This document shows, piece after piece, positions 50,706 to 64,000 of a DNA stretch of 64,000 bases. Under the pieces are notes generated by a model. That model did no database searches. It was not told the DNA's origin and saw only the letters and a list, made by a program, of their open reading frames with translations. The position numbers were made by a program, and so were the translations under genes. This stretch comes from Leeia oryzae DSM 17879 (GTDB taxonomy: Bacteria; Pseudomonadota; Gammaproteobacteria; Burkholderiales; Leeiaceae), in the NCBI RefSeq assembly GCF_000376945.1, contig NZ_AQXU01000016.1:1-64000 (forward strand), read 5' to 3'. Numbering within the stretch: the stretch's first letter is position 1; every line of letters begins with the position of its first letter.

Positions 50706-53387
50706 GTGCAAGACGACCGCCTCTCACCCGACGAATTGCTGGAGGAAATCCAGCGGCAGGAGCAGGAATCGCAACGCGGACGGCTCAAGATCTTTTTTGG
50801 TGCCTGTGCTGGCGTGGGTAAAACCTACGCCATGCTGTCTGCGGCTCGCCAGAAAAGAGAAGAAGGGCTGGATGTCGTGGTAGGGGTGGTCGAAACCCAC
50901 GGACGTCAGGAGACAGAATCGCAACTGATCGGGCTGGATATCCTCCCTCGCAAAGACATCCTGTACAAGGACAACCTGCTGACAGAGTTTGACCTGGACG
51001 CGGCACTGGCCCGAAAACCGGCATTGATCCTGGTGGACGAACTGGCACACTCCAATATCCCCGGCTCCCGCCATCCCAAGCGCTGGCAAGATGTGGAAGA
51101 ACTGTTGGCTGCCGGCATTGACGTTTACTCCACCCTGAACGTACAGCATCTGGAAAGCCTGAATGACATTGTCGGGCAGATTACCGGCATCGTTGTTCGC
51201 GAAACCCTGCCGGACCGGGTATTTGACCAGGCCGCAGACATTACGCTGGTGGACATTCCGCCGGACGAATTGCTGGCTCGCCTGAGCGAGGGCAAAGTCT
51301 ACATGCCAAGGCAGGCAGAACGTGCCAGCAAGCATTTCTTCCGCAAAGGCAACCTGCTGGCCCTGCGCGAACTGGCGCTGCGGCGTACCGCAGACCGGGT
51401 AGATGCCCAGATGCGGGCCTACCGGGCAGATCAGTCGATCCATCCGATCTGGCAAGCACGTGAAAGACTACTGGTGTGCGTCGGGTTGCATGCGGCCGAA
51501 AAACTGATTCGTAACGCCAGCCGGCTGGCTGCCAGCCTCAAGGCCGACTGGATTGTCGCCTATGTGGAGACACCACAGTTATTGAACCTGCCGGCAGAGC
51601 AGCGCAATCACATGTTGAAAATGCTCAAGCTCGCCCAGACACTGGGGGCAGAAACCAGCGTGCTGGCCGGCACCTCCCTGCCCGCGACGCTACTGGCCTA
51701 CGCGCGCAGCCGCAACGTCTCCAGAATGGTCGTCGGTAAATCGCATCAACCCGTCTGGCGCCAACGCTGGCAACCGTCACTCGCCGACCAGTTGTCACAA
51801 CAGGCCAGCGATGTCGATGTCTTCGTGGTAGCACATGATGCCTTTGAACCCTCCCCTGCCAAACCGGGAGAGCCTGCCGCGGCCTCCTTGCTGTTTGAAA
51901 CCACCGATACACCCAAACAACTGAAAGGCTACCTCTTTGCCGCACTTGGCTGCGGACTGACCACCTTGCTGACGGCGGGCTTGTTGCAATATTTTGACCT
52001 TGCCAATGTGGTCATGATTTTTTTGCTGATTGTGGTGCTGATTGCCATCCGCTATGGCCGTGGTCCGGGCATTTTTGCCTCCGTGACCTCGGTCATGGCC
52101 TTTGATTTCTTTTTTGTCCCCCCCCGATTATCGTTCACGGTTTCGGATACCCAATACCTGCTGACGTTTACCGTGATGCTGATTGTGGCCATCCTCATCA
52201 GCCAGCTGGCCGCCAAATTACGTTTCGAGGCCAATATTGCGACCTATCGCGAACGTCGTACCAGTGCACTGTATGAATTGGGTCAGGCGCTGGGTGGCGC
52301 ACTGACCACCAGCCAGATCATCGACATTGCCAGCCAGCAACTGGGGCCATTGTTCCAGTCAAAAATCCTGTTTTATCTGCCGGATAGCCAGGACCGGCTG
52401 ATGCTGGTAGACCATGAGCAAGAACCGGTAGACGCCGGGGTGGCACAATGGGTGTTTGACCATCAGGAAATGGCCGGACTGGGCACCAATACCCTGCCTG
52501 CCAACAGTTACCTGTTTCTGCCCCTGAAAGCGCCAATGCGTACGCGCGGTGTATTGGCCATCCGCCCCAGACAGATTCACCTCATCTACGCCCCGGAGCA
52601 ACAGCGACTACTGGACACCTGCGCCGCGCAGATCGCACTGGCCCTGGAGCGGGTGCATTATGTGGAGGTTGCACAAGATGCCATTGTGGCCATGGAGTCC
52701 GAGCGTTTGCGTAACAGTGTACTCTCGACTGTCTCGCATGATTTGCGTACCCCGCTCACCTCGCTGGTGGGATTGGCCAGTCTGATGGAGTCTGACCACC
52801 TGCCCCCGGCAGAACGCAAAGAAACTGCCAGCCTGATCAAGGCAGAAAGCCTGCGCATGAACAATATTGTGACCAACCTGCTGGACATGGCCCGCTTGCA
52901 ATCTGGTGTTCATCTTCACAAAGAATGGCTGATGATCGAAGAAGTCATCGGTAGTGCCATCCGTGAAACCCAGCGTAGCCTGGCGCAGCATCAGGTTCGG
53001 CTGGAAATCGCGCCTGGTCTGCCGGTGGTGGAAATCGATGCCGTGCTGATCGAGCGGGTGCTGGTGAATCTGCTGGAGAATGCGGCCAAATACACACCAC
53101 CTGGCAGCGAAGTCCGGCTTTCTGCGCATGTGGCATTGTCCATGCTGGTGATCAGCGTATCAGATAATGGCCCCGGTTTGCCGGAGGGCCTAGGCAACAA
53201 GATTTTTGAGAAATTCACCCGGGGCGTCAATGAATCCAGCACCGCCGGTGTCGGGCTGGGCTTGGCCATTTGCAAGAGCATAATCGAAGCACACCAAGGC
53301 AGAATACAGGCAGAGAATATCCAGCCACACGGGGCAAAATTCAGCTTTACCTTGCCGGTAAGTGCCACCCCCGTGTTACCGGAGTAA
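50706..53387 (+). CDS. kdpD: Osmosensitive K(+) sensor histidine kinase KdpD
   Basis: Senses K(+) limitation and turgor and phosphorylates KdpE. 893 residues: the N-terminal KdpD domain (20-235) with Walker A GACAGVGKT (32-40), a universal-stress-like domain, four membrane helices (about 400-500), a GAF-like region, HisKA with His678 (SHDLRTP) and a HATPase domain with SDNGPGLPEG and GVGLGLAICKSI. Starts at GTG 50706, two bases after the kdpC stop. Confidence 0.98.
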   Translation: MQDDRLSPDELLEEIQRQEQESQRGRLKIFFGACAGVGKTYAMLSAARQKREEGLDVVVGVVETHGRQETESQLIGLDILPRKDILYKDNLLTEFDLDAALARKPALILVDELAHSNIPGSRHPKRWQDVEELLAAGIDVYSTLNVQHLESLNDIVGQITGIVVRETLPDRVFDQAADITLVDIPPDELLARLSEGKVYMPRQAERASKHFFRKGNLLALRELALRRTADRVDAQMRAYRADQSIHPIWQARERLLVCVGLHAAEKLIRNASRLAASLKADWIVAYVETPQLLNLPAEQRNHMLKMLKLAQTLGAETSVLAGTSLPATLLAYARSRNVSRMVVGKSHQPVWRQRWQPSLADQLSQQASDVDVFVVAHDAFEPSPAKPGEPAAASLLFETTDTPKQLKGYLFAALGCGLTTLLTAGLLQYFDLANVVMIFLLIVVLIAIRYGRGPGIFASVTSVMAFDFFFVPPRLSFTVSDTQYLLTFTVMLIVAILISQLAAKLRFEANIATYRERRTSALYELGQALGGALTTSQIIDIASQQLGPLFQSKILFYLPDSQDRLMLVDHEQEPVDAGVAQWVFDHQEMAGLGTNTLPANSYLFLPLKAPMRTRGVLAIRPRQIHLIYAPEQQRLLDTCAAQIALALERVHYVEVAQDAIVAMESERLRNSVLSTVSHDLRTPLTSLVGLASLMESDHLPPAERKETASLIKAESLRMNNIVTNLLDMARLQSGVHLHKEWLMIEEVIGSAIRETQRSLAQHQVRLEIAPGLPVVEIDAVLIERVLVNLLENAAKYTPPGSEVRLSAHVALSMLVISVSDNGPGLPEGLGNKIFEKFTRGVNESSTAGVGLGLAICKSIIEAHQGRIQAENIQPHGAKFSFTLPVSATPVLPE

Positions 53388-53393
53388 GGCCCC

Positions 53394-54089
53394 ATGCGTG
53401 AAAACAGCCACATGATTGTTCTGATAGAAGACGAAAAACCCATTCGTCACTTTCTGGGTAGCGCACTTCAGGAGGCTGGCTTTCACTATATTGAAGCAGA
53501 CACGGGCAAGCAGGGACTGGTCGATGCTGCCACCCGCAAACCGGATCTCATCATTCTGGACCTGGGTTTGCCGGATATGGACGGTATCGACGTCATCAAG
53601 CAACTGCGCGCCTGGTCGGATGTCCCCATTCTGATCTTGTCAGCCCGTAGCCGGGAAACCGAAAAAGTCATGGCGCTGGATGCCGGTGCGGATGACTATC
53701 TGACCAAACCCTTCGGCGTGGCAGAATGCCTGGCCAGGGTGCGCGTCTTGCTCCGCCGGCGCCAGGCCTCCAATACTGCTGAACAGTCCGTGTTTGAGTT
53801 TGGGAATATCCGGGTGGATCTGGCCAAACGCATCGTAGAAAAAGCCGGCGAACATATCCATCTAACCCCCATCGAATACCGCTTGCTGGTCACGCTAATC
53901 CGCCATGCGGGCAAGGTGTTGACCCACCGCGAACTACTCCGGGAAGTCTGGGGCCCGTCTTATGCCGAGAGTAACCAGTACGTTCGGATATACATGGGGT
54001 ATTTGCGGCAGAAACTGGAAGAAGACCCGGCACAACCCCGTTACATCCTGACCGAAACCGGCGTCGGATACCGTCTGGTGACAGACTGA
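53394..54089 (+). CDS. kdpE: Response regulator KdpE
   Basis: OmpR-type regulator that activates the kdp operon. 231 residues: receiver domain with phospho-acceptor Asp56 (ILDLGLPDMDG) and acidic pair near 12-13, and a C-terminal winged helix ending with LRQKLEEDPAQPRYILTETGVGYRLV. Six bases after kdpD. A possible binding site lies before the operon (45915-45942). Confidence 0.98.
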   Translation: MRENSHMIVLIEDEKPIRHFLGSALQEAGFHYIEADTGKQGLVDAATRKPDLIILDLGLPDMDGIDVIKQLRAWSDVPILILSARSRETEKVMALDAGADDYLTKPFGVAECLARVRVLLRRRQASNTAEQSVFEFGNIRVDLAKRIVEKAGEHIHLTPIEYRLLVTLIRHAGKVLTHRELLREVWGPSYAESNQYVRIYMGYLRQKLEEDPAQPRYILTETGVGYRLVTD

Positions 54090-54137
54090 CCGTCGTGAAA
54101 TCGCGTCATGCCGAGCTTGCTTTCCGTTCACGGCACG

Positions 54138-55082
54138 TCACTGATACATCTTGCGCCAGGCCATGGGGGATACCCCAAAGGCTTTGCCGAAGTGGTGGCG
54201 CAAGGTCACGGTATTGCCAAAGCCGGTCAGGCGGGCGATTTCTTCTACCGGTTGTCCGGTGGTTTCCAGCAGGCGCTGGGTCAGGGCCAGGCGCTCGCTC
54301 AGTAGCCAGTTGCCCACGGTAGTGCCGGTCAGTTGCCGGAAATGACGGGTAAAGGTACGCCGGCTCATCAGCGATTTTTCGGCCAGGCTGTCGAGCGTAT
54401 GCGGTTCATCCAGATGCGTCCGTACCCATGCAATCAGGTCAGCCAGACGGGAACCACTGGCAGTGGCCGGTAGTGGTTGCTCGATATACTGGGCCTGGCC
54501 CCCCTGCCGGTGTGGGGGCACCACCAACCGCCGGGCAACGGCATTGGCAGACTCGGCACCGTAACGCTGGCGGATCATGTGCAGGCAGCAGTCAATGCCG
54601 GCGGCCGTACCGGCAGACGTTAGCAACCGGCCATCTTCCACATACAGGACATTCGGATCCAGTTGTACATCCGGATACCGCTGGGCAAAGTCCTGCGCGA
54701 ATGCCCAGTGCGTAGTCGCCTTGCGTTGCGACAACAAACCGGCCTCTGCCAGCACGTAAGCCCCCAGACAAAGCCCCACCACCTGTGCACCTCGTTCATG
54801 CGCGGCACGCAAGGCATCCAGCAAGGGCTGTGGCGGGCGTTCGGCCACATCGCGCCAGCTGGGGATGATCACCGTGTGCGCCGTTGCCAGTATCTCCAGC
54901 CCATGCGCCACCATCACCTCGAAACCGGCGGTGGTTTTAAGCGGCCCGGTTTCTGCGGCACACACTTGCAGTTCAAAGTCTGGTGCGTCGGGCCGCTCGT
55001 CCCCAAAGACCACGCAAGGCACCGACAAGTGAAACGGGCTGATCTGGTCAAATGCCACTACGGCAATGCGATGCACAGGCAT
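54138..55082 (-). CDS. GlxA family AraC-type transcriptional regulator
   Basis: A 314-residue regulator with an N-terminal DJ-1/PfpI-like domain (RIAVVAFDQISPFHLSVPCVVFG onward) and a C-terminal AraC domain (about 210-314: LADLIAWVRTHLDEPHTLDSLAEKSLMSRRTFTRHFRQLTGTTVGNWLLSERL). The cysteine elbow VVGLCLGAYVLAEAGLL is present near residues 107-123. Similar to FtrA/GlxA proteins that control nearby catabolic genes. GGAGAGACC precedes ATG 55082. Divergent from the isochorismatase gene, its likely target. Confidence 0.93.
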   Translation of the reverse strand: MPVHRIAVVAFDQISPFHLSVPCVVFGDERPDAPDFELQVCAAETGPLKTTAGFEVMVAHGLEILATAHTVIIPSWRDVAERPPQPLLDALRAAHERGAQVVGLCLGAYVLAEAGLLSQRKATTHWAFAQDFAQRYPDVQLDPNVLYVEDGRLLTSAGTAAGIDCCLHMIRQRYGAESANAVARRLVVPPHRQGGQAQYIEQPLPATASGSRLADLIAWVRTHLDEPHTLDSLAEKSLMSRRTFTRHFRQLTGTTVGNWLLSERLALTQRLLETTGQPVEEIARLTGFGNTVTLRHHFGKAFGVSPMAWRKMYQ

Positions 55083-55207
55083 GGTCTCTCCGGCATGAAA
55101 ACATATTGGCCCGATATTAGCACTTTTTGTCATTCGGGCCACTCATGTAACAAACTGAATGTGCGGATAATACGTTCTGTCGCACACCACAAACACCGGA
55201 GAACACC

Positions 55208-55735
55208 ATGTCAAACACCAAGACCGCCCTGATCGTCATTGATATCCAGAACGATTATTTTGCCGGGGGTAACTACCCGCTGGAAAACGCAGAAGGCGCC
55301 CTCGCAAATGCCCTGACCGCCATGACGCATGCCAAAGACCAAGGTATGCCGATCATCCTGGTCCAGCACATTGCCAACCCGGCCAATGGCGTATCGCCTT
55401 TCTTTAATGAAAACACCGAAGGTGTGCAGATCCACCCAAAGGTACGCGCCGCAGCGCCTGATGCGCCGGTCATCGTCAAACGCTTTGCCGATGCATTCCA
55501 CCAAACCACGCTGGACGATACCTTGCAGCAACTGGGTGTCACCAAGCTGCTGGTCTGCGGCATGATGACGCAAAACTGCGTGACGCATACCGCCATTTCC
55601 AAAACGGCAGAGAAATATCAGGTAGAGATCATTGGCGATGCCTGCGCTACCGTCACCAACTTGCTGCACGCCATTGCACTGGGCGCCGTGAAAACCCGCA
55701 TGACGGTACTGAACACCGCCGAGGCATTTGCTTGA
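55208..55735 (+). CDS. Isochorismatase-like cysteine hydrolase
   Basis: A 175-residue hydrolase of the isochorismatase/nicotinamidase superfamily. The triad is Asp12 (VIDIQNDYF), Lys91 (VIVKRFADAF) and Cys124 (GMMTQNCVTHTA), with the cis-peptide loop just before. Substrates are amides or isochorismate-like ethers; which is unknown. GGAGAACACC precedes the ATG. Divergent from a GlxA-type regulator that probably controls it, an arrangement seen in many proteobacteria. Confidence 0.93.
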   Translation: MSNTKTALIVIDIQNDYFAGGNYPLENAEGALANALTAMTHAKDQGMPIILVQHIANPANGVSPFFNENTEGVQIHPKVRAAAPDAPVIVKRFADAFHQTTLDDTLQQLGVTKLLVCGMMTQNCVTHTAISKTAEKYQVEIIGDACATVTNLLHAIALGAVKTRMTVLNTAEAFA

Positions 55736-55748
55736 TCACCGTTTGTAA

Positions 55749-55785
55749 TCAGAAGCTCACCTCGAAGCAGCTGCCGTAACCGGCG
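55749..55785 (-). pseudogene. 3' fragment of a sensor histidine kinase
   Basis: On the minus strand it reads PAGYGSCFEVSF then a stop, almost the same as the C-terminus PAPGYGCCFEVSF of the intact kinase at 57065-58459. Upstream the frame is closed within a few codons. Only the last part of the gene survives. Confidence 0.6.
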
Positions 55786-55937
55786 GGGATGATGTTTCGG
55801 CTATTAGAATACTCTCTTGGAATTCATGCAGAAGGTTGGTCACGTATCGAGGGTATAGCCAGCAATACTTTTACATTAAATGGATCGCAAGCTATACCCT
55901 ATTTTTTTCTACCGCTTTGCCAGTGACGCAGTCAGCA

Positions 55938-56885
55938 TCAAGCCGACAATTTACCAACCAGGGCGCGCAATTCAGCCGGCAGCGGCGGCAGGGCTTCCGC
56001 TTGCTGATGCACGCGGTATTTGCCCTGATTGCCAAGCTTGGCTTCGCTAGCGTAAATCCAGGCTTGGGCAACCCTGTCTCCACTCGCGGCCTGAGAGGAC
56101 CAGCTCCCGGTAAAGGTACTCACCAGATTCGGTGTCGCATCAAAGGTCAGCGGGTAGGCGTGCGTGGCGCCACTTTGCATATAGGTGACCAGCTGAATGG
56201 TGAAATCACTGTCTGGCCAGAACCAGTTGGCTTCATTGCGAATCGGGCAGCCGCACATCATCGTCACCATCGCGGTACAACTGAGCTGCGCCGACTGCCA
56301 GTCTGCCACCACATTGCTGATGCACAAACCGGGGATTTCGATGACCAGACCTTGCGGGTACTGCGGCGATAGGCCGATGTCTACCCCCGGCAGCAGGGTA
56401 ATGTCGGTCTGCACCAGCCGGGCCTGGCCGGGATGCTTCAATGGACCGAAAACCAGCAGGCGAAAGTCGGTGGGTTCACTGAGCCGGGTCTGCAGCACAA
56501 CATCGGTGGTCTGGCCGTCACTGGCGAAGGGCATGCTACGGCTGACAGGCGCCATCAGGTCCGCAGGCCCTGCACTTTCGGCCGTTGGCGCGCTGGCAAG
56601 CGCATGGGCCACGATGCGGCCGCTGCGGGGGTCCTGCAAGGCAATCAGGGCGCTGTGATTGTCAGCATTGGCCGCATCATGCCCCAGATACTTGCCGCCA
56701 CGCGCTGCTGGCCGAACCAGCAAGCGGGTGTTCAGCGCCGCGTGCCTGTTCGTCGCCTTGCTGCCGGTATCAGCCGCTCGGGCAAGTGCCGGGACACCTA
56801 CCGCCGTTGCCGCAGTGATCAGTCTGGCCGCACTACCTGCCGCAAATCCGGCGCCAAGGCTGCCGAAAAAATTCCGTCTGTTCAT
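55938..56885 (-). CDS. Tat-exported protein of unknown function
   Basis: A 315-residue protein with a twin-arginine signal (MNRRNFFGSLGAGFAAGSA... ending in ALARA, about 37 residues), so it is exported folded, usually with a cofactor. In the mature part, MCGCPIRNEANWFWPDSDF is conspicuous, with two Cys near residues 211-213, and an STFTGSWSSQAASGDRVAQAWIYA segment near 253-276. I recognise no family. GGGAGAAG before the ATG sets the start. It lies between two fragments of a sensor kinase gene. Confidence 0.7.
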   Translation of the reverse strand: MNRRNFFGSLGAGFAAGSAARLITAATAVGVPALARAADTGSKATNRHAALNTRLLVRPAARGGKYLGHDAANADNHSALIALQDPRSGRIVAHALASAPTAESAGPADLMAPVSRSMPFASDGQTTDVVLQTRLSEPTDFRLLVFGPLKHPGQARLVQTDITLLPGVDIGLSPQYPQGLVIEIPGLCISNVVADWQSAQLSCTAMVTMMCGCPIRNEANWFWPDSDFTIQLVTYMQSGATHAYPLTFDATPNLVSTFTGSWSSQAASGDRVAQAWIYASEAKLGNQGKYRVHQQAEALPPLPAELRALVGKLSA

Positions 56886-56894
56886 CTCTTCTCC

Positions 56895-57062
56895 CTATTT
56901 GGCCTGCATGGTCTCTGGCATTATAGTTATAGGCGTGAATGTTTGGCCATTGCAATCATCAGCAGTCCACACCGGGTGGTCTGCCAGTTGCGCACAGTCT
57001 AACGGAATGCCCGGGTTACCGTTACGGGCCAATACCTTCTGATGAATCAGGTCTGCGTCAGA
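56895..57062 (-). pseudogene. Sensor-domain fragment of a histidine kinase
   Basis: In frame on the minus strand: DLIHQKVLARNG and CAQLADHPV and GQTF, matching DLIHQTVLARNG, RAQMTDHPV and GQTF of the intact kinase (residues 95-134). The fragment begins directly after the stop codon of the intact kinase gene and ends in TAG nine bases before the Tat-protein ATG. Remnant of a second paralogous kinase. Confidence 0.65.
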
Positions 57063-57064
57063 CC

Positions 57065-58459
57065 TTAAAAACTCACCTCGAAGCAGCAGCCGTAACCGGG
57101 TGCTGGCGGGGTGAGCCGAGCCGTGGCCTGATACTGACTGGCGATTTCTTGTACGATGGCCAAACCAAGGCCGGCACCGGCAGACGAGGCGGTATCCGAC
57201 CGGTAATGGCGGTTAAAGACCGCCTGCCACTCCGTTTCTGGAATCCCCGGCCCGCTGTCGCTCACCCGCAAGACCGGCCGGCCCTTTTGTTGCAAGACCT
57301 GCACCGTCACCGTTCCACCTTTGGGGGTATACCGCACGGCATTATCAATCAGGTTGGCAATCATTTCTTCCATCAGCCCGCCGTGCCCGCGTATCCAGGG
57401 CGTATCCGGACAATCGGCTTCAAATCCCAGATCAATTTCCCGCCCGATCGCGGCATCCACATAACGCGCCGTCACCCGCCGGGCGACTTCTTCCAGATTC
57501 AATTGCTGCGGGCTTTGCAGCATCAGGTAAGACCCCGCTTCCGCTTTGGATAGCAGCAGCAATTGATCAATCACGTGGGCGGTGCGGGCCGCACTCTCCT
57601 CGATATCCCTCAGCATCCCCAGCATGACCTCCGGTTCGCGATTCTTTTGCGCCAGTTGCGCCTGTAACCGCAAGCCGGCGACCGGCGTACGCAACTGATG
57701 TGCCGCATTGGCGGTAAAGCGCCGCTGGGACTCTATCGACTCTGCCAGTCGGGCCATCAGCCGGTTAATCGCCTGGATCAGCGCCCGGACTTCCAGTGGC
57801 GCAATGGACGGGTCCAGCGGCGCCAGATTGTCGGTAGAGCGCTTGGCCGCCTCAACCTCCAGCACCTGCAATGGTTTCAGCGTCGTCGCAATCCCCCGCC
57901 AGACCAGCGTGATGCTCAGCACCACCAGAATCAGCATCAGCGTCACCACGCCCACCAGAATTTCCCGGGCCAGCAGGTCCCGCTTGTGGCGGGTCTCTCC
58001 CACTTCCACCAGCACCGGGTGATGGTCCGGCTGCAAAAATTCCACCATGGAAATGATGCGAAACGTTTGTCCGTGCAGCACTTCATCGTGATACACGGGG
58101 TGATCCGTCATCTGCGCACGCTCTGGCGGTGTGCCCAGATCTCCGTTACGGGCCAGTACCGTCTGGTGGATCAGGTCCTTGACCTGAAAGCGGATCTGGT
58201 CACTGCGGTCGGTCAACAATACAGTTCTGGCTGCGGGCGGCAAATTCAGCTTCGGCTTGCCGTCTTCGTAAGTCAGCTGCTTGGCCAGACTTTCGGCCGA
58301 GTCCATCAAGGCGCGGTCATAGGCAAAGTTGGCGTAGTTATACGCCAACAAATAGGTCACGACAGAGGCAATCACGCCGATAATGGACAGCGATATCCAC
58401 AACCGGGTTACCAGCGTCTTACGCAGCGACAAAGCCCCATGGCGGCGAAATCGTCTCAT
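57065..58459 (-). CDS. TctE/QseC-like sensor histidine kinase
   Basis: A 464-residue sensor kinase. Membrane helices at about 20-40 and 165-190 enclose a periplasmic 2CSK_N sensor domain; a HAMP region follows, then HisKA with His254 (NAAHQLRTPVAGL) and a HATPase domain with NLIDNAVRYTPKGG, SDSGPGIPETE and GAGLGLAIVQEI. The wording fits the TctE/QseC-like class that senses tricarboxylates or other organic acids. Starts with a four-base overlap with the response regulator. Confidence 0.95.
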   Translation of the reverse strand: MRRFRRHGALSLRKTLVTRLWISLSIIGVIASVVTYLLAYNYANFAYDRALMDSAESLAKQLTYEDGKPKLNLPPAARTVLLTDRSDQIRFQVKDLIHQTVLARNGDLGTPPERAQMTDHPVYHDEVLHGQTFRIISMVEFLQPDHHPVLVEVGETRHKRDLLAREILVGVVTLMLILVVLSITLVWRGIATTLKPLQVLEVEAAKRSTDNLAPLDPSIAPLEVRALIQAINRLMARLAESIESQRRFTANAAHQLRTPVAGLRLQAQLAQKNREPEVMLGMLRDIEESAARTAHVIDQLLLLSKAEAGSYLMLQSPQQLNLEEVARRVTARYVDAAIGREIDLGFEADCPDTPWIRGHGGLMEEMIANLIDNAVRYTPKGGTVTVQVLQQKGRPVLRVSDSGPGIPETEWQAVFNRHYRSDTASSAGAGLGLAIVQEIASQYQATARLTPPAPGYGCCFEVSF

Positions 58460-59115
58460 GACAATTCCCTCAGCACGTAGCCCAGGCCTCGGACGGTGCG
58501 GATTTCCAGCGCAGCAGGCTCCAGCTTTTTGCGCAGTCGATGAATATAGACTTCCACGGTATTGTCACCGGCCGATCCGTCCTGATCGCCCAGCCGGCTG
58601 GCGAGAATTTCCTTGGCCACCATCCGCCCGGGCTGTTGCATGAAGGATTCCAGTACCACCAGTTCTTTCAGCGACAAGGCCAGCGGCACATCATTGCAAT
58701 AGGCGGCCCGCTCGTTCCACAACCAAACCAGCTTGCCCAGCTGTGTACTAGCCCCCTGCCCGCGGCGCAGCAAGGCCCGCACCCGTGCCTCGAACTCGGT
58801 CAGCTCGAAGGGCTTGGTCAGATAATCGTCCGCCCCTTCGTTCAGCCCCAGCACCCGGTCGGTCGTATGGTCGCGCGCACTCAGGATCAGCACCGGTACG
58901 GTCTGTTTTCTGCTCCGCAAGCGGCGCAATACCTCCAGCCCGTCCATCACCGGCAGTCCAAGGTCCAGCACCACCAGATCATAATGCTCGGCCGCAATCA
59001 GGGTATCGGCATAGCGACCATCATGCACCGACTGCACCACATGTCCCATTTCTGTCAGCGCCTGGATCAACCCTTTGCTGAGCAGCAAATCGTCCTCTAC
59101 GAGGATGACATTCAT
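58456..59115 (-). CDS. OmpR-family response regulator (TctD/QseB-like)
   Basis: A 219-residue regulator: receiver domain with phospho-acceptor Asp51 (VVLDLGLPVMDGLEVLRRLR) and acidic Glu7/Asp8/Asp9, winged helix from about 125 to 219. It pairs with the downstream kinase through an ATGA overlap. Divergent from the acyl cassette at 59196; with the -35/-10-like pair on the minus strand near 59150-59180 the promoters would overlap, so it may control that cassette. Confidence 0.95.
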   Translation of the reverse strand: MNVILVEDDLLLSKGLIQALTEMGHVVQSVHDGRYADTLIAAEHYDLVVLDLGLPVMDGLEVLRRLRSRKQTVPVLILSARDHTTDRVLGLNEGADDYLTKPFELTEFEARVRALLRRGQGASTQLGKLVWLWNERAAYCNDVPLALSLKELVVLESFMQQPGRMVAKEILASRLGDQDGSAGDNTVEVYIHRLRKKLEPAALEIRTVRGLGYVLRELS

Positions 59116-59195
59116 CGGAAACGTCCTTTTCAGTAAGTTGTAAGGTTAGGTCGCTAATATTCGGGCATCCAAACTTGCAAACGGTTCATCCGACG

Positions 59196-60104
59196 ATGCC
59201 ACTTGACACGTTATTCCTCACATCAGCCGCCCCAGCTGCCAAGTGCATGCTGTTCCACGGCCTGGTGAGTTCGCCAAAAGAGTTCTCTGTTATTAACAAC
59301 GCGCTCAAGCGGGATCAGGTAGACATTCTGTGCCCGGAAATCCCCGGCTACACCCTGCAGGCAGGTTTTGGGCCTGCGCGCTGGCAAGACTGGCTGCAAC
59401 ATGCGCTAGCCGCCTTCGATGCCGAAGTCGCCCGGTCCGGCCCGATCATGATCGGAGGACTGTGTATTGGCGCCCTACTGGCACTGGCCATTGCCCGGCA
59501 ACGCCCCGGCCAGGTACTGGGCCTTGCCTTGCTGTCACCAACCCTGTTCTACGACGGCTGGGGCTTGTCTCCCTGGCGCAAGCTGCGCCATATCGGCTAT
59601 CTGCCCGGTTTGCGCAACTGGATCCAGATCAAGGAAAAACCGCCTTTCGGCATCAAGAACGAGCAGATCCGCAAGTGGATCGCACGCGAGATGCGCGAGC
59701 AGGCCCTGTCTGGCGCCGGTGCAGCCAAGCTGCCGCTGTGGGCCATTCACGAGGCCGAGAAGCTGATCGCGCATACCATGGCGCAACTGTCGCACATCCA
59801 TGCCCCGACCCTGATCCTGCACGCCAGAGAGGACGAAGTCACCAGCCTGCGCAGCCCGGAATACCTGATGCGACAACTGGCCTCCACCCACAAGCAGCTG
59901 ATCATCCTCAACAACAGCTACCACATGATTACCCTGGATAACGATCGCCACCGTGTGGTCAAAGCACTGGCTGACTTTATCCATCCACAAAAGGTACCCC
60001 GCAATGAGAACAACCCCGAGCACAACTCTGAGCACAACCCTGGACACCATCAAAGACCTGATTCACGACAAGTTTGGCATCAAAAAAGCCTTGTTGCTGG
60101 ATGA
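59196..60104 (+). CDS. Alpha/beta hydrolase with cysteine nucleophile elbow (putative acyltransferase)
   Basis: A 302-residue alpha/beta hydrolase of the serine aminopeptidase S33/lysophospholipase-like type. The nucleophile elbow is GGLCIG, so the nucleophile is Cys90 and not Ser; Asp213 (HAREDEV) and His243 (NNSYHMIT) complete the triad. Cys in this place is found in PHA synthases (GxCxG) and dienelactone hydrolase, and suits acyl transfer to or from a thiol. The last 35 residues are low-complexity and overlap the acyl carrier protein gene in another frame. Substrate unknown; an ACP-bound acyl chain is the natural guess. Confidence 0.85.
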   Translation: MPLDTLFLTSAAPAAKCMLFHGLVSSPKEFSVINNALKRDQVDILCPEIPGYTLQAGFGPARWQDWLQHALAAFDAEVARSGPIMIGGLCIGALLALAIARQRPGQVLGLALLSPTLFYDGWGLSPWRKLRHIGYLPGLRNWIQIKEKPPFGIKNEQIRKWIAREMREQALSGAGAAKLPLWAIHEAEKLIAHTMAQLSHIHAPTLILHAREDEVTSLRSPEYLMRQLASTHKQLIILNNSYHMITLDNDRHRVVKALADFIHPQKVPRNENNPEHNSEHNPGHHQRPDSRQVWHQKSLVAG

Positions 60105-60273
60105 CCAGCCGGTAGCCGAATTCGGCCTGGATTCGCTGAGTCTGGTTGAACTGCTGTTTAGCATCGAAGAACACTTCAAGATTGATTTGCCGGACAACCG
60201 CACCGACCTCAACACCCTCACCGGGCTGGCCGGGCTGGTGGATGACATCCTGGCAGAAACGGCCGCGCAATGA
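60004..60273 (+). CDS. Acyl carrier protein
   Basis: An 89-residue ACP with the phosphopantetheine serine at residue 44 (EFGLDSLSLVELLF). The N-terminal dozen residues are Thr-rich; the helical core runs from LDTIKDLIHDKFGIKK to the end. It is not the housekeeping AcpP (DSLDTVELVM). It overlaps the hydrolase gene by 101 bases in a different frame and the ketosynthase gene by four bases, so the three are made together. Confidence 0.93.
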   Translation: MRTTPSTTLSTTLDTIKDLIHDKFGIKKALLLDDQPVAEFGLDSLSLVELLFSIEEHFKIDLPDNRTDLNTLTGLAGLVDDILAETAAQ

Positions 60274-61487
60274 GCAGGAAAGTCGTGATTACCGGCATCG
60301 GCGTCGTCAGCCCGCTGGGGAATTCACCCGCCGCGCTTTGGCAAGCCTTGTCAGACGGCCAGAGCGGCCTGCAATTGCTGCCGGAATCCATGAGCAATGG
60401 CATCCCGACAGTGGCTGGCCTGTGCCAGTTTGACAGCAGCCAATGGTTCAGCAAAATGCAGTTATCCGGCATGGATAGGGTCAGCCAGTTTGCCGTGGCT
60501 GCAGCCGACATGGCGTTGCAAGACGCCGGACTGGCCGGCCAAGACCTGACAGAAGCCGGTATTTACATGGGTTGCGGCATGGGTGGGGCCCTCGCCATCG
60601 AGCAGGCCTACAAAGCCCACTTCGAGACCCACAGCCGATTGTCGCCCTTATCTGTCGTCGCCGGCATGACCAATGCGCCCGCCGCCCAGATGTCGATGCG
60701 CTTCAAGGTGCAGGGGCCGGTGATGACGTATTCGGTGGCCTGTGCTTCATCCGCCATTGCCATTGGCGAAGCTGCGCGCGCCATTGCCCGTGGCGACATT
60801 GACCTCGCCTTTGCCGGTGGCGCCGAGGCCTTGCTGGGCAGCGGCGTCATCCATGCCTGGCAAGCCATGCATACACTCGCCAAGCCCGATCCGGACCACC
60901 CGGAAGCCTCCTGCAAAGCCTTCTCCAGTGAACGGAGCGGCCTGGTACTGGCCGAAGGAGCTGCTGTGCTGATGCTGGAAGAGGCCTCTGCCGCCATTGC
61001 GCGTGGCACCACCATCTATGCCGAACTCGCCGGGTTTGGCATCAGTGCCGATGCCAGCCACCTGACCAAACCGGATGCATCCGGCCAGCAGCGCGCCCTG
61101 AAAGCTGCGCTAAAGTCTGCCAATCTGGCACCTGCGGATATCCAGTATTGCAACACCCACGGCACAGCCACCCATGTGGGGGATGAAGTCGAAGCGCAGG
61201 CGTTGTCATCTCTGTTTGGTACTACCCTGTTTGCCAGCTCCACCAAAACCTTGCACGGTCATCTACTGGGGGCGGCTGGCGCGCTGGAAGCCGCCATTAC
61301 CGCCCTGGCCGTGCATCACCGGCAAATGCCCCCCGGCATCGCGCATCTGCCGCAAGACCCCAAATGCCCGTTGCAACTGGTCACAGAGCACAACCGGGGC
61401 CAGCTCCCCGCCCCCACCCACGCCATCAGCAACTCGTTTGCCTTTGGCGGTACCAATGCCGTGCTGGTTTTCAGCCAGTACGCTTGA
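60270..61487 (+). CDS. Beta-ketoacyl-ACP synthase (FabF-like)
   Basis: Condenses malonyl-ACP with an acyl chain. 405 residues with the complete elongating triad Cys158 (SVACASSAIA), His297 (CNTHGTAT) and His331 (TLHGHLLGAAG); Lys326 of STK is in place. It differs from FabF/FabB and groups with accessory synthases that serve specialised lipids or aryl polyenes. ATGA overlap with the ACP gene. Neither malonyl transferase, ketoreductase nor dehydratase is present, so those steps must come from the general fatty-acid pathway. Confidence 0.93.
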   Translation: MSRKVVITGIGVVSPLGNSPAALWQALSDGQSGLQLLPESMSNGIPTVAGLCQFDSSQWFSKMQLSGMDRVSQFAVAAADMALQDAGLAGQDLTEAGIYMGCGMGGALAIEQAYKAHFETHSRLSPLSVVAGMTNAPAAQMSMRFKVQGPVMTYSVACASSAIAIGEAARAIARGDIDLAFAGGAEALLGSGVIHAWQAMHTLAKPDPDHPEASCKAFSSERSGLVLAEGAAVLMLEEASAAIARGTTIYAELAGFGISADASHLTKPDASGQQRALKAALKSANLAPADIQYCNTHGTATHVGDEVEAQALSSLFGTTLFASSTKTLHGHLLGAAGALEAAITALAVHHRQMPPGIAHLPQDPKCPLQLVTEHNRGQLPAPTHAISNSFAFGGTNAVLVFSQYA

Positions 61488-61525
61488 GTTTTCATCACCC
61501 TGTCACAGAAAGGCACTAATCTGTT

Positions 61526-62083
61526 ATGGAAGTTGAAGTACCCGAATCCAAGAACCCCAGGCTGAATGCCTGGATTGCAATCACTGTCTTGTGTTTTTCG
61601 GTATGCATGGGCATCGCCAAGATCAAGGACGACAATATCGTGCAGGCCATGCAGCAGTACAAGGCCGATATTGCCGACACCTGGAATGAATACCAGGCCA
61701 AGTCGATCAAGCTGCACATCGACGAGCAAACCCTGCTGGTTGCCTCGTTGCAGACTGGCAAGCCAGGCCCTGCCGCTGCAAAACAGCTGGCAGAGATTCA
61801 GACCGAGGTCGTGCATTACAAGCAGCGCCTGCCAGAATTCCAGGCAACGGCCAAAGCCAAGCAAAAAGCCTTTGATGCGCTAAGCTACAGAGATGACCAG
61901 TTCGATCTGGCCGATGCCTTGCTGTCGATTTCGCTGGCCATTGCCGGTATCGCCGCACTGACCGGCACCTTCTGGCTGCTGGCCACCTGCTGGGGCTTCG
62001 GCAGCATTGGGTTTAGCTTTGTCGTCGCAGGGTTTATGGGGTTGCCATGGCATCCGGATGCCATCATCGCCTTCCTGACCTGA
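61526..62083 (+). CDS. DUF4337 family membrane protein
   Basis: A 185-residue DUF4337 protein: one N-terminal membrane helix (LNAWIAITVLCFSVCMGIA), a long alpha-helical, coiled-coil-like middle (about 35-125, QQYKADIADTWNEYQAKSIKLH...AEIQTEVVHYKQRL) and two membrane helices near the C-terminus. Function unknown. It starts 39 bases after the ketosynthase gene and 51 bases before the ABC permease gene, so it links the two groups. Confidence 0.87.
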   Translation: MEVEVPESKNPRLNAWIAITVLCFSVCMGIAKIKDDNIVQAMQQYKADIADTWNEYQAKSIKLHIDEQTLLVASLQTGKPGPAAAKQLAEIQTEVVHYKQRLPEFQATAKAKQKAFDALSYRDDQFDLADALLSISLAIAGIAALTGTFWLLATCWGFGSIGFSFVVAGFMGLPWHPDAIIAFLT

Positions 62084-62133
62084 GCACTTTTGAAAGTACG
62101 ATAAAAAATAGATAACGGAAGCAGGTAGTACGC

Positions 62134-63864
62134 ATGTTCGAGCTGTTCACGCCGATTCTTCATCAAAATAATAATAGTCTGAAGCCGAACCGCTGGGACT
62201 GGATCTTGCTACCCTTTGTGCTGGCCGTGCTGGTGTTGCTGGCGTATGCCGCCATGCAGATGACCAAGCCGTTCCACATCGGCGAAGTCACGCCCATTTC
62301 GCTGTCGCCAGCCTACCTGCCCTACTACCTGCTGCGCACCATCCTGCGGATGTTCACGGCGCTGTTTTTCTCGCTGCTGTTCAGCTTTGTGTTTGCCGCT
62401 GTCGCCGCCAAGTACAAAACCGCCGAGAAATTCATGATCCCGATGCTTGATATCTTACAATCGGTGCCGATTCTCGGGTTTCAGGCCATTGCCATTGCCC
62501 CGTTTATTGCCTTCTTCCCCGGCAATCTGCTGGGTGTAGAATGCGCGGCCATTTTTGCCATCTTCACCTCGCAAGCCTGGAACATGGCATTCAGCCTGTA
62601 CCAGTCCATCCGTAACGTACCGCCAGAGCTCAACGAAGCCTCACGCGTGTTCCAGATGACGGGCTGGCAGCGCTTCTGGCGGCTGGAGCTGCCGTTTGCC
62701 ATGCCCGGATTGCTGTGGAACATGATGATGTCCATGTCCGGCGGATGGTTCTTTCTGGTCGCGGCCGAGGCCATCTCGGTAGCAGGGCAAGACATCAAGC
62801 TACCGGGTATCGGTGCATATATCGCCGTCGCCATCGAAACCAAGAACGGTTCAGCCATCGCTTACGCTATTCTGGCCATGCTGACCGGCATCCTCTTGTA
62901 CGACCAGTTATTCTTCCGTCCGTTGCTGGCCTGGGCTGACAAGTTCCGCTTTGAAGAAACCCAAGGTGATACGGCCCAGAAATCCTGGTTGCTGGACTGG
63001 GGCCGTAAAAGCAATTGGGTACGTGCAGCCACCGAATCTTTCTGGATGCACATGCGCAAAACGCTGGGCTGGTTCGGCAAGCGCCCGTCAGACAAACCAC
63101 TGGCGCACCCGGTCTTCAAACACCGAGACCGCCTGGCACGCATCGGGGAATCCCTGCTGTTTCTGCTGCTGGCGATTACCGTCTACCGGCTGGTGCTATT
63201 CATCCATCGCGATGTGGGCTGGCAAGAGGCCTTGCACGTCTTCGGGCTGGGGTTCATCACCCTGTTCCGGGTCATGTTGCTCATCGGTCTGGCGTCGCTA
63301 TTCTGGGTACCCGTCGCCATCTGGATCGGGCTACGTCCCCGCTATGCACAAAAGATTCAGGCGGTGGCCCAGTTTCTGGCGGCCTTCCCGGTCAACCTGA
63401 TGTTCCCGGTGGTGGTTTTCTGCATTGTCAGGCTGGACCTGAACCCCGGCATCTGGCTCAGCCCGCTGATGGTATTCGGTACGCAGTGGTACATCCTGTT
63501 TAACGTGGTGGCCGGTGCGTCTTCCATCCCCAACGAGCTGCGCCTTGCAGCCGACAACCTGGGGCTCAAGGGCTGGCTGAAGTGGAAGCGCGTCTATCTG
63601 CCGGCCGTTTTCCCCAGCTTTGTTACCGGCGCCATTACCGCCAGTGGCGGCTCATGGAACGCCAGCATCGTGTCCGAATATGTATCCTGGGGTAAAACCC
63701 GCCTGATTGCCGACGGTCTGGGCAGCTATATCAAACAGATGACCGATATCGGCGACTTTCATCGCATTGCACTCGGCATTGGCGTGATGTGCATTTTCGT
63801 CATGCTGCTGAACCGCTTCTTCTGGCGCAAGCTCTATATTCTGGCCGAAGACAAAGGACATTAA
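62134..63864 (+). CDS. ABC transporter permease, fused double BPD domains (NitT/TauT-like)
   Basis: A 576-residue permease made of two binding-protein-dependent transport domains in one chain, about twelve membrane helices. The two EAA loops are ELNEASRVFQMTGWQRFWRLELPFAMPG and ELRLAADNLGLKGWLKWKRVYLPAVFPS, each contacting one ATPase. The linker between halves (about 270-330) is charged. Fusions of this type occur in anion (nitrate, sulfonate, bicarbonate-like) importers. The ATPase gene follows after nine bases; no substrate-binding protein gene is visible. Confidence 0.9.
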   Translation: MFELFTPILHQNNNSLKPNRWDWILLPFVLAVLVLLAYAAMQMTKPFHIGEVTPISLSPAYLPYYLLRTILRMFTALFFSLLFSFVFAAVAAKYKTAEKFMIPMLDILQSVPILGFQAIAIAPFIAFFPGNLLGVECAAIFAIFTSQAWNMAFSLYQSIRNVPPELNEASRVFQMTGWQRFWRLELPFAMPGLLWNMMMSMSGGWFFLVAAEAISVAGQDIKLPGIGAYIAVAIETKNGSAIAYAILAMLTGILLYDQLFFRPLLAWADKFRFEETQGDTAQKSWLLDWGRKSNWVRAATESFWMHMRKTLGWFGKRPSDKPLAHPVFKHRDRLARIGESLLFLLLAITVYRLVLFIHRDVGWQEALHVFGLGFITLFRVMLLIGLASLFWVPVAIWIGLRPRYAQKIQAVAQFLAAFPVNLMFPVVVFCIVRLDLNPGIWLSPLMVFGTQWYILFNVVAGASSIPNELRLAADNLGLKGWLKWKRVYLPAVFPSFVTGAITASGGSWNASIVSEYVSWGKTRLIADGLGSYIKQMTDIGDFHRIALGIGVMCIFVMLLNRFFWRKLYILAEDKGH

Positions 63865-63873
63865 GGACATACC

Positions 63874-64000
63874 ATGCAGGACTTCCTGTTAGAACTGACC
63901 GCCGTCGACAAAAACTTCCAGACCACTGACGGCACCGCCAGAAAAGTACTGGAAAATGTGGATTTCACCCTGCACGAAGGCGAAATTGTCGCCCTGCTGG
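63874..64000 (+). CDS. ABC transporter ATP-binding subunit (partial, runs off the edge)
   Basis: The first 42 codons of an ATPase: MQDFLLELTAVDKNFQ to HEGEIVALL, the strand leading to the Walker A motif, which lies beyond the window. AAGGA precedes the ATG. Belongs to the permease gene upstream. Confidence 0.88.
   Translation, partial: MQDFLLELTAVDKNFQTTDGTARKVLENVDFTLHEGEIVALL

What the first reader, a model, noticed from the sequence alone, without database searches (positions are those of the whole stretch)
59196..61487. Compact three-gene acyl cassette: Cys-hydrolase, ACP, ketosynthase
Seen: overlapping genes for an alpha/beta hydrolase, a non-housekeeping acyl carrier protein (Ser44) and an elongating ketosynthase with intact Cys158/His297/His331. 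Known: FabF-type enzymes need malonyl-ACP and work with FabG/FabZ/FabI; these are absent. Inference: a minimal chain-extension or acyl-transfer system that borrows the reductive steps from primary metabolism and releases or transfers its product with the hydrolase. I know of no described system with exactly this set.
Basis: partly seen in the sequence, partly recalled or inferred. Interest (0 to 1): 0.75.

Follow-up and report, generated by a model that had tools for sequence, protein, structure and literature searches.

The report
Conserved three-gene fatty-acyl chain module
Three overlapping genes (a lipase-like enzyme with a cysteine in its active site, an acyl carrier protein and a chain-extending enzyme) recur as a unit in many relatives of this bacterium and look like an undescribed cousin of the pair that makes special fatty chains for rhizobial nodulation signals; what it makes is unknown.

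Summary
HYD (59196-60104, Cys90/Asp213/His243), ACP (60004-60273, Ser44) and KS (60270-61487, Cys158/His297/Lys326/His331) are overlapping genes. The trio is a conserved operon: of 300 genomes sampled from the window's order, 32 (18 genera, 14 families) carry HYD-ACP-KS in this order. The nucleophile is Cys in 30 of these 32, but also in 21 of the 38 HYD places without the trio. Two congeners lack the trio.

The KS is not housekeeping FabF. A 100/99 branch separates the FabF, FabB and PRK09116 rows from the 21 trio KSs tested plus NodE-like KSs. The closest described kind is NodFE, a KS/ACP pair that makes special acyl chains. The added part is a lipase-fold enzyme with Cys for Ser, as in PHA synthase.

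Best reading: a NodFE-like chain-modifying module with its own off-loading enzyme, perhaps an acyltransferase. Product and release chemistry are unproven. A 2CSK_N two-component system directly adjoins the trio in 5 of 29 examined loci. No description was found in the literature searches, all in one library (38, 66, 86, 89 and 102 came nearest to the trio).

The parts
59196..60104 (+). Alpha/beta hydrolase (HYD), 302 aa, Cys90-Asp213-His243; monoacylglycerol-lipase/Est30-like fold
   Evidence: Pfam Hydrolase_4 67.4 bits; PDB by sequence 7e0n 3.2e-16; Foldseek 5xks 4.7e-15; C90, D213, H243 invariant in 14 trio members
60004..60273 (+). Acyl carrier protein, 89 aa, phosphopantetheine Ser44 (FGLDSL)
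   Evidence: Pfam PP-binding 38.4 bits; 23.7% identity to the genome's AcpP
60270..61487 (+). Elongating ketosynthase, NodE-clade, 405 aa, Cys158/His297/Lys326/His331
   Evidence: Pfam ketoacyl-synt 153.8 bits; tree; residue map
58456..59115 (-). OmpR-family response regulator, divergent from the trio; possible regulator (inference)
   Evidence: Pfam Response_reg + Trans_reg_C; relatives beside the trio in L053 (63%) and L129 (56%)
57065..58459 (-). 2CSK_N sensor histidine kinase, partner of the response regulator
   Evidence: Pfam 2CSK_N 112.4 bits; same domain in the kinases beside trios L053, L129, L194, L195
61460..61482 (+). Terminator-like hairpin at the end of KS (weak: 4 such sites found in the region, 2.8 expected)

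Best explanation
The trio is a dedicated acyl-chain-modifying module of the NodF/NodE kind with its own off-loading enzyme. The ACP, once phosphopantetheinylated and malonylated by the cell's own enzymes, is the partner of the KS, which adds one or a few two-carbon units to an acyl primer. FabG, FabA/FabZ and FabI of primary metabolism would do (or omit) the reductive steps. HYD then takes the finished chain from the ACP onto Cys90 as an acyl-thioester and transfers it to an acceptor (slightly more likely) or releases it. Shown: the genes, their conservation as a unit, KS kinship with NodE-like enzymes and separation from FabF, intact KS and ACP active-site residues, the Cys-Asp-His triad in a lipase fold. 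Inferred: ACP-KS pairing, borrowed reductive steps, HYD acting on the ACP-bound chain, transfer rather than hydrolysis, and regulation by the adjacent two-component system.
For: Trio in the same order and strand in 32 of 300 genomes of the order (18 genera, 14 families), with different flanks between lineages (20 loci). KS tree of 41 rows: the 21 trio rows (20 of the 32 plus L009) and two NodE-like rows on one side of a 100/99 branch, FabF (10), FabB (3) and PRK09116 (2) rows on the other; the quick tree of 49 rows also has the trio/NodE clade (SH-aLRT 96). All 15 trio/NodE-clade rows mapped have Trp where four FabF/FabB rows have the pocket-gating Phe202 (role from passages of PMC7138838). 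Of the FabF interface residues K65 and K69, the window has M63 and G67, which fits a dedicated ACP. HYD: C90, D213, H243 invariant in 14 members; a GxCxG elbow with Cys-His-Asp is the architecture of PHA synthase, an acyl-transferring enzyme (passages of PMC5509742). nodEF are required for alpha,beta-unsaturated Nod-factor chains and nodG is not (passages of PMC9048898). The window groups with G088 and G022 in both the KS and HYD trees, as expected of a unit inherited together.
Against: I saw no biochemical or metabolite evidence for any member. HYD resembles lipases and esterases, so it could act on a lipid rather than on the ACP. HYD relatives occur without the trio: 38 of 70 places had no ACP-KS downstream on the same strand (L131, L134, L139 have KS nearby in another arrangement; for L023, L035, L123, L127 and L146 the contig ends under 750 nt downstream, so absence is not certain). 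Cys is not peculiar to the trio: 30 of 32 trio places but also 21 of 38 others, and two trios of the sample plus L009, L011, L163, L169 have Ser. My census started from HYD, so it cannot count ACP-KS pairs without HYD; L072 and L073 are such pairs in the same KS clade. The ACP is not NodF-like (19% identity). K65 is Lys/Arg in 4 of 15 clade rows and K128 is Arg in 14 of 15 and His in one, so loss of AcpP contacts is partial. Ala at FabF G399 is also found in Iga11 and ApeO and was neutral in FabF crosslinking; two trio KSs keep Gly. KS identity to NodE-like L075 (38.7%) is no higher than to FabF (37.8-39.3%). Deep nodes of the HYD tree are weak. One of the 32 HYD matches (G097, L040) has an in-frame TAG.
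Confidence: 0.55

Rival explanations
1. HYD is a plain thioesterase: the module makes a modified fatty acid that is released free, perhaps as a diffusible signal, and the neighbouring 2CSK_N two-component system controls or senses it.
For: Alpha/beta hydrolase fold and six Ser-type trios among those seen (G221, G115, L009, L011, L163, L169); weak Pfam Thioesterase match (19.8 bits, cut-off 26.4); 2CSK_N kinase plus OmpR-type regulator directly beside the trio in 5 of 29 trio loci with flanks, divergent in window/L053/L129 and co-directional after KS in L194/L195.
Against: Cys nucleophiles are uncommon in hydrolysing members of this fold (general knowledge). In 24 of 29 loci no such system is directly adjacent, and the L194/L195 regulators (40% identity) are no closer to the window's than two paralogues elsewhere in the own genome (48-49%), so the link may be recruited or chance.
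Confidence: 0.27
2. The KS/ACP pair is a lineage-specific paralogue that helps ordinary fatty-acid synthesis (membrane tuning) and HYD is an unrelated lipase that happens to be in the operon.
For: Housekeeping-like KS active site; HYD kin are lipases; HYD relatives are often found without ACP/KS, and ACP-KS pairs without HYD.
Against: KS lies outside FabF and FabB; gene order kept over 14 families, with overlapping genes in the window.
Confidence: 0.12
3. HYD is a BioH-like pimeloyl-ACP methyl ester esterase and the trio serves biotin synthesis.
For: Weak bioH model match (24.3 bits of 206.95).
Against: A BioH above the cut-off lies elsewhere in the genome (C24:95388-96107, 294 bits).
Confidence: 0.02

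Closest known systems
NodF/NodE of rhizobia (Nod-factor acyl chain synthesis)
   Same: ACP gene directly followed by KS gene (L075); KS in the same 100/99 clade; a pair that needs other enzymes for the reductive steps
   Different: Trio adds a hydrolase gene; no nod genes among the five flanking genes scanned; ACP 19% identical to the NodF-like ACP; KS 39% identical; product unknown
FabF/FabB housekeeping ketosynthases
   Same: Fold and catalytic C-H-K-H
   Different: Separate clade; fabF model cut-off missed (380.3 of 493.75); Phe202 is Trp, K65/K69 contacts changed
Bacterial monoacylglycerol lipase / Est30 carboxylesterases
   Same: Fold of HYD
   Different: Ser replaced by Cys; encoded with ACP and KS
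PHA synthase PhaC
   Same: GxCxG elbow and Cys-His-Asp triad in an alpha/beta hydrolase fold
   Different: No PhaC domain in the Pfam scan; HYD is about half the length of PhaC (recalled)
Uncharacterised cluster with class III aminotransferase, HAD-IB phosphatase, EamA/SMR pair, DegT, GNAT, arginase (Xanthomonas sacchari plasmid, L074)
   Same: Holds a related hydrolase, an ACP and a NodE-clade KS
   Different: Hydrolase has Ser; many more genes; the window's genome has no close homologue of its aminotransferase (eight matches shown at 29-32% and one at 35% identity)

Membership tests
FabF (KAS II) | NCBIfam TIGR03150 fabF equivalog score at or above cut-off | tested here: not met
   380.3 of 493.75 bits
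FabF (KAS II) | Groups with housekeeping FabF in a tree | tested here: not met
   FabF (10 rows) is its own 100/99 group without the trio
NodE/NodF | KS groups with NodE-like KSs apart from FabF/FabB | tested here: met
   100/99 branch; L075 is NodE by context (nodQ, cysD, sulfotransferase, fabG); L076 is only NodE-like
NodE/NodF | ACP gene directly upstream of the KS gene | tested here: met
   4-nt overlap; same order in L075
NodE/NodF | ACP is a NodF homologue | tested here: not met
   19% identity to the NodF-like ACP of L075
NodE/NodF | Encoded with nod genes | tested here: inconclusive
   None among the five flanking genes scanned; the rest of the window and genome was not searched for nod genes
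Aryl-polyene ketosynthases | Match to the PRK09116 or PRK09185 models (their link to aryl polyene clusters is recalled) | tested here: not met
   284.2 of 470 and 231.1 of 407 bits; the two PRK09116 rows lie outside the clade
PHA synthase | GxCxG elbow with Cys-Asp-His | tested here: met
   GLC90IG, D213, H243
PHA synthase | PhaC domain in Pfam | tested here: not met
   Only Hydrolase_4, Abhydrolase_6, Abhydrolase_1 and a sub-threshold Thioesterase
BioH | TIGR01738 score at or above cut-off | tested here: not met
   24.3 of 206.95 bits; a BioH above cut-off lies elsewhere
Monoacylglycerol lipase / Est30 | Ser nucleophile (recalled) | tested here: not met
   Cys90 at the elbow
Monoacylglycerol lipase / Est30 | Fold | tested here: met
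   Foldseek 5xks E 4.7e-15, TMt 0.79; model mean pLDDT 73.5
Each of these | Enzymatic activity | not testable with these tools
   Needs biochemistry

The most novel reading that the evidence does not exclude
A widespread, undescribed lipid or lipid-signal pathway of three genes in the window's order: a NodFE-like KS/ACP pair builds a special acyl chain, and a lipase-fold enzyme turned acyltransferase by a Ser-to-Cys change carries it on Cys90 and attaches it to an envelope or small-molecule acceptor, in several lineages under the control of an adjacent 2CSK_N two-component system.
Probability: 0.3. Interest if true: 0.75.

Novelty: new variant of a known kind. Interest (0 to 1): 0.52.

Why it matters
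NodFE is known as a symbiosis gadget of rhizobia. This evidence puts NodE's kin in a three-gene operon of 32 genomes from 14 families, beside a hydrolase, and in other ACP-KS pairs without one (L072, L073), which suggests that NodFE belongs to a larger family of small acyl-modifying modules. A Cys in place of Ser in a lipase fold beside an ACP gives a concrete, testable case of a hydrolase turned acyltransferase. The product can be looked for by comparing the lipids of trio-positive strains with those of trio-negative congeners or of a deletion mutant.

Tried and rejected
Housekeeping FabF/AcpP duplicate: rejected by model cut-offs and tree. BioH and biotin synthesis: set aside. Aryl-polyene-type KS: rejected. 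PHA synthase membership: rejected on Pfam, kept as a mechanistic parallel. Foreign composition: no signal; GC3 of the trio genes (69.6-71.9%) lies within that of five other genes of the window (66.4-75.4%). The Paraburkholderia and Roseomonas plasmid hydrolases first found show no ACP/KS beside them in the three regions read (H1, H12, H19); 3 of 73 records were read. Rfam gave nothing in 52000-64000. Promoter and terminator scans are near chance level.

Literature: ten paper runs ran. Of these, some were aimed at the trio or a gene set like it, 48 at the X. sacchari cluster, 65 at NodFE, 79 at KS gating, 85 at OlsI, 88 at PHA synthase. Seven returned no paper; no listing named this trio. The library holds only openly licensed PubMed Central papers, and the term sets were narrow. 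Of the four papers cited I saw passages only.

Corrections of my own notes: the notebook says 22 of 30 and 33 of 71; recounted it is 21 of 30 and 32 of 70. In one search the row L027 was labelled AITLG by a first-match expression; the aligned elbow is GLCIG. The Cys/Ser counts here are from the aligned column. In the trees the rows L109 and L111 are the same gene of G001 (C3:90425); its neighbour at C3:89213 was tested only by blastp (35% to the window KS).

Rows dropped: the final KS tree leaves out 19 of 60 KS rows: six duplicates of trio KSs, L111, ten PKS-type rows (L001, L085, L086, L093, L095, L100, L101, L104, L105, L112), and L004 and L077 (long branch or unsure place). The first tree kept 49 rows, among them L001, L004, L077, L086, L093, L101, L104 and L111.
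Full report
What is there. The three genes lie as described: HYD 59196-60104, ACP 60004-60273, KS 60270-61487, all on the + strand, with overlaps of 101 and 4 nt. HYD matches Hydrolase_4 and Abhydrolase models, ACP matches PP-binding, KS matches both ketoacyl-synt models, above the Pfam cut-offs. KS falls short of the fabF equivalog cut-off (380.3 of 493.75 bits) and ACP of the acyl_carrier cut-off (39.9 of 70.45). The own genome (3.79 Mb, 25 contigs) has acpP and fabF on contig 13, with open frames upstream that read as fabD and fabG by eye, and on contig 25 a type I PKS and a PRK09185-type KS with an ACP some 8 kb from it.

Conservation. A genome-contig scan with HYD gave four relatives, of which L009 and L011 carry HYD-ACP-KS. 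A three-row HYD alignment searched against 300 genomes drawn from the window's order matched 61 genomes at 70 places at E <= 1e-40. I read DNA around all 70 (flanks from about 1.5 to 9 kb, some cut by contig ends) and classified them with blastp and with HMMs built from trio members: 32 places, each in a different genome, have ACP and KS downstream of HYD on the same strand. By the codes these genomes span 18 genera and 14 families. Both congeners searched (G001, G002) lack HYD. Of their seven KS matches none looks like the trio's: five fall outside the clade in the tree, one (C3:89213) is 35% identical to the window KS, and one (L105, 3059-aa open frame) was taken as a PKS and not placed. Flanking genes are shared mainly within lineages (20 loci).

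Further out. In 369 genomes of the class the 14-row HYD model gave five matches at 1e-60, the own one included; of the other four, L163 (Ser) has the trio, L164 and L165 (Ser) show none in their flanks, and L162 (Cys) has no ACP/KS in the 9.2 kb read. In 398 genomes of the phylum there were 34 matches; I read 19 of the 20 loci given out (L168-L186; the other is the window): L168 (already known, Cys) and L169 (same order, Ser) have HYD-ACP-KS. So the Cys form of the trio was seen only in the window's order.

The nucleophile. By the aligned column, 30 of the 32 trio HYDs have Cys; the two with Ser are G221 (L048/L066) and G115 (L071). Four trios outside that count, L009, L011, L163 and L169, have Ser. 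Of the 38 places without the trio, 21 have Cys and 17 Ser, so Cys is not a mark of the trio alone. In a 14-row alignment of Cys-type trio HYDs, C90, D213 and H243 are invariant. An AlphaFold model from five sequences (mean pLDDT 73.5, pTM 0.76) finds bacterial and human monoacylglycerol lipases and Est30 in the PDB (best E 4.7e-15), as does sequence search for the bacterial ones (7e0n, 3.2e-16). The HYD tree (80 rows) has weak deep nodes; the window groups with L025, L027 and L129 (99), and neither Cys nor Ser forms make one clade.

The ketosynthase. In a 41-row tree one branch (100/99) separates FabF (10 rows, E. coli and own included), FabB (3) and PRK09116 (2) from the 21 trio rows (20 of the 32, plus L009), two NodE-like rows, the X. 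sacchari cluster KS, and the Azoarcus and Caballeronia KSs. L075 is NodE by context: ACP, KS, fabG, cysD, nodQ and a sulfotransferase on a Sinorhizobium plasmid; L076 is only NodE-like. The NodE-like rows join L009 and L074 (100/99), so the trio rows are not one clade by themselves. The window KS is 59 and 57% identical to L053 and L052, 39% to L075, 38-39% to E. coli and own FabF: kinship with NodE rests on the tree and on shared residues, not on raw identity. At the FabF F202 position all 15 clade rows mapped have Trp and four FabF/FabB rows have Phe; at G399 13 of 15 have Ala; at R68 and K69 none of 15 is basic, at K65 4 of 15 are, and K128 is Arg in 14 and His in one. Passages of PMC7138838 name F202 and I108 as gating residues of the acyl pocket and K65 and K69 as interface residues, and say that G399A is neutral in their assay and natural in Iga11 and ApeO; that R68 and K128 touch AcpP is recalled.

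Mechanism. [quoted passage not shown] passages of PMC4618531 describe NodF, NodE and NodG as ACP, KS and reductase homologues. This is the precedent for a KS/ACP pair that leans on other enzymes for the reductive steps. HYD could play NodA's part (transfer) or that of a thioesterase (release). Its GxCxG elbow and Cys-His-Asp triad are those of PHA synthase, where an acyl-Cys intermediate is proposed (passages of PMC5509742). I favour transfer at about 55:45; this is inference.

Regulation. The window's 2CSK_N kinase and OmpR-type regulator are divergent from HYD. I looked for relatives of this pair in the flanks of 29 of the 32 trios (19 of L052-L071, nine of L113-L129 with about 3 kb of flank, and the window). 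Five have such a pair directly adjacent: window, L053 and L129 (divergent; regulators 63 and 56% identical to the window's), and G128 (L118/L194) and G172 (L115/L195), where the regulator's open frame begins at the end of KS in the same direction and the kinase follows. All five kinases carry 2CSK_N. L066 and L052 have a pair a few kb away, and L194 holds a second pair further on. The L194/L195 regulators are 40% identical to the window's, less than two paralogues in its own genome (48-49%), so the link was made more than once or is partly chance: the first look listed 87 regulator-like candidates in this genome.

A second system. On an X. sacchari plasmid a relative of HYD sits with transporter genes, two EamA proteins, DegT aminotransferase, arginase, GNAT, ACP, KS, class III aminotransferase and HAD-IB phosphatase. 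Aminotransferases 60-82% identical to that one lie beside HYD relatives in 25 distinct places among the loci I read (L014 has only a 24% match). HYD there has Ser except in L178/L190, L179 and L186, one genus (g464), which have GLCAG. Some of these places also hold ACP and KS (L066, L071, L187, L191). The window's genome has only 29-35% identical aminotransferases. This system deserves its own study.

Verdict. The finding is real, ordered and conserved, with KS and ACP that are not housekeeping. It is a new variant of a known kind, NodFE-like acyl-modifying pairs, with a hydrolase, mostly of Cys type, as the new part. The function is unproven.

Noticed in passing
L074:1667-10457 (X. sacchari plasmid NZ_CP010410.1); L010, L066, L071, L187, L189, L191: A widespread cluster of unknown product: class III aminotransferase (60-82% identical in 25 distinct places read), HAD-IB phosphatase, relative of HYD (mostly Ser), SMR pair, DegT aminotransferase, GNAT, arginase, with or without ACP/KS; not all parts in every place. 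Aminotransferase plus phosphatase could make an amino alcohol that is then acylated (speculation).
   Followed up: partly
window 57065-59115; L053, L129, L194, L195: 2CSK_N sensor kinase plus OmpR-type regulator directly beside the trio, divergent in three loci and downstream in the same direction in two.
   Followed up: partly
L056:10615-17565 and L058:11168-18001: In genus g37 the trio is convergent with genes that look (by eye, from the protein sequences) like an arn operon for aminoarabinose addition to lipid A.
   Followed up: no
L117, L119, L122, L123, L127, L128, L130: Seven genus g37 genomes carry a second Cys-type HYD paralogue with no ACP/KS found beside it (contig ends close by in L123 and L127).
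   Followed up: no
L135-L138, L140-L144, L146-L149: Another HYD family with a G(V/M)C(L/M)G elbow (AMCLG in L149) and no ACP/KS found nearby; in L142 and L147 it lies beside what looks by eye like a MASE1-type sensor gene.
   Followed up: no
G000:C25:764045-830250: Own genome has a type I PKS (open frame 2527 aa) and, about 57 kb away, a PRK09185-type KS with an ACP 8 kb from it.
   Followed up: no
L072:6746-8245 and L073:6714-8230: Other ACP-KS pairs of the NodE clade without HYD: one beside an isoprenylcysteine-carboxylmethyltransferase-family gene (Azoarcus), one beside a KS III, a methyltransferase and an FAD oxidoreductase (Caballeronia).
   Followed up: no
window 61526-62083: A DUF4337 protein starts 39 nt after KS; no match in the two congeners, and not recognised by eye after KS in the two nearest trio loci.
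   Followed up: partly
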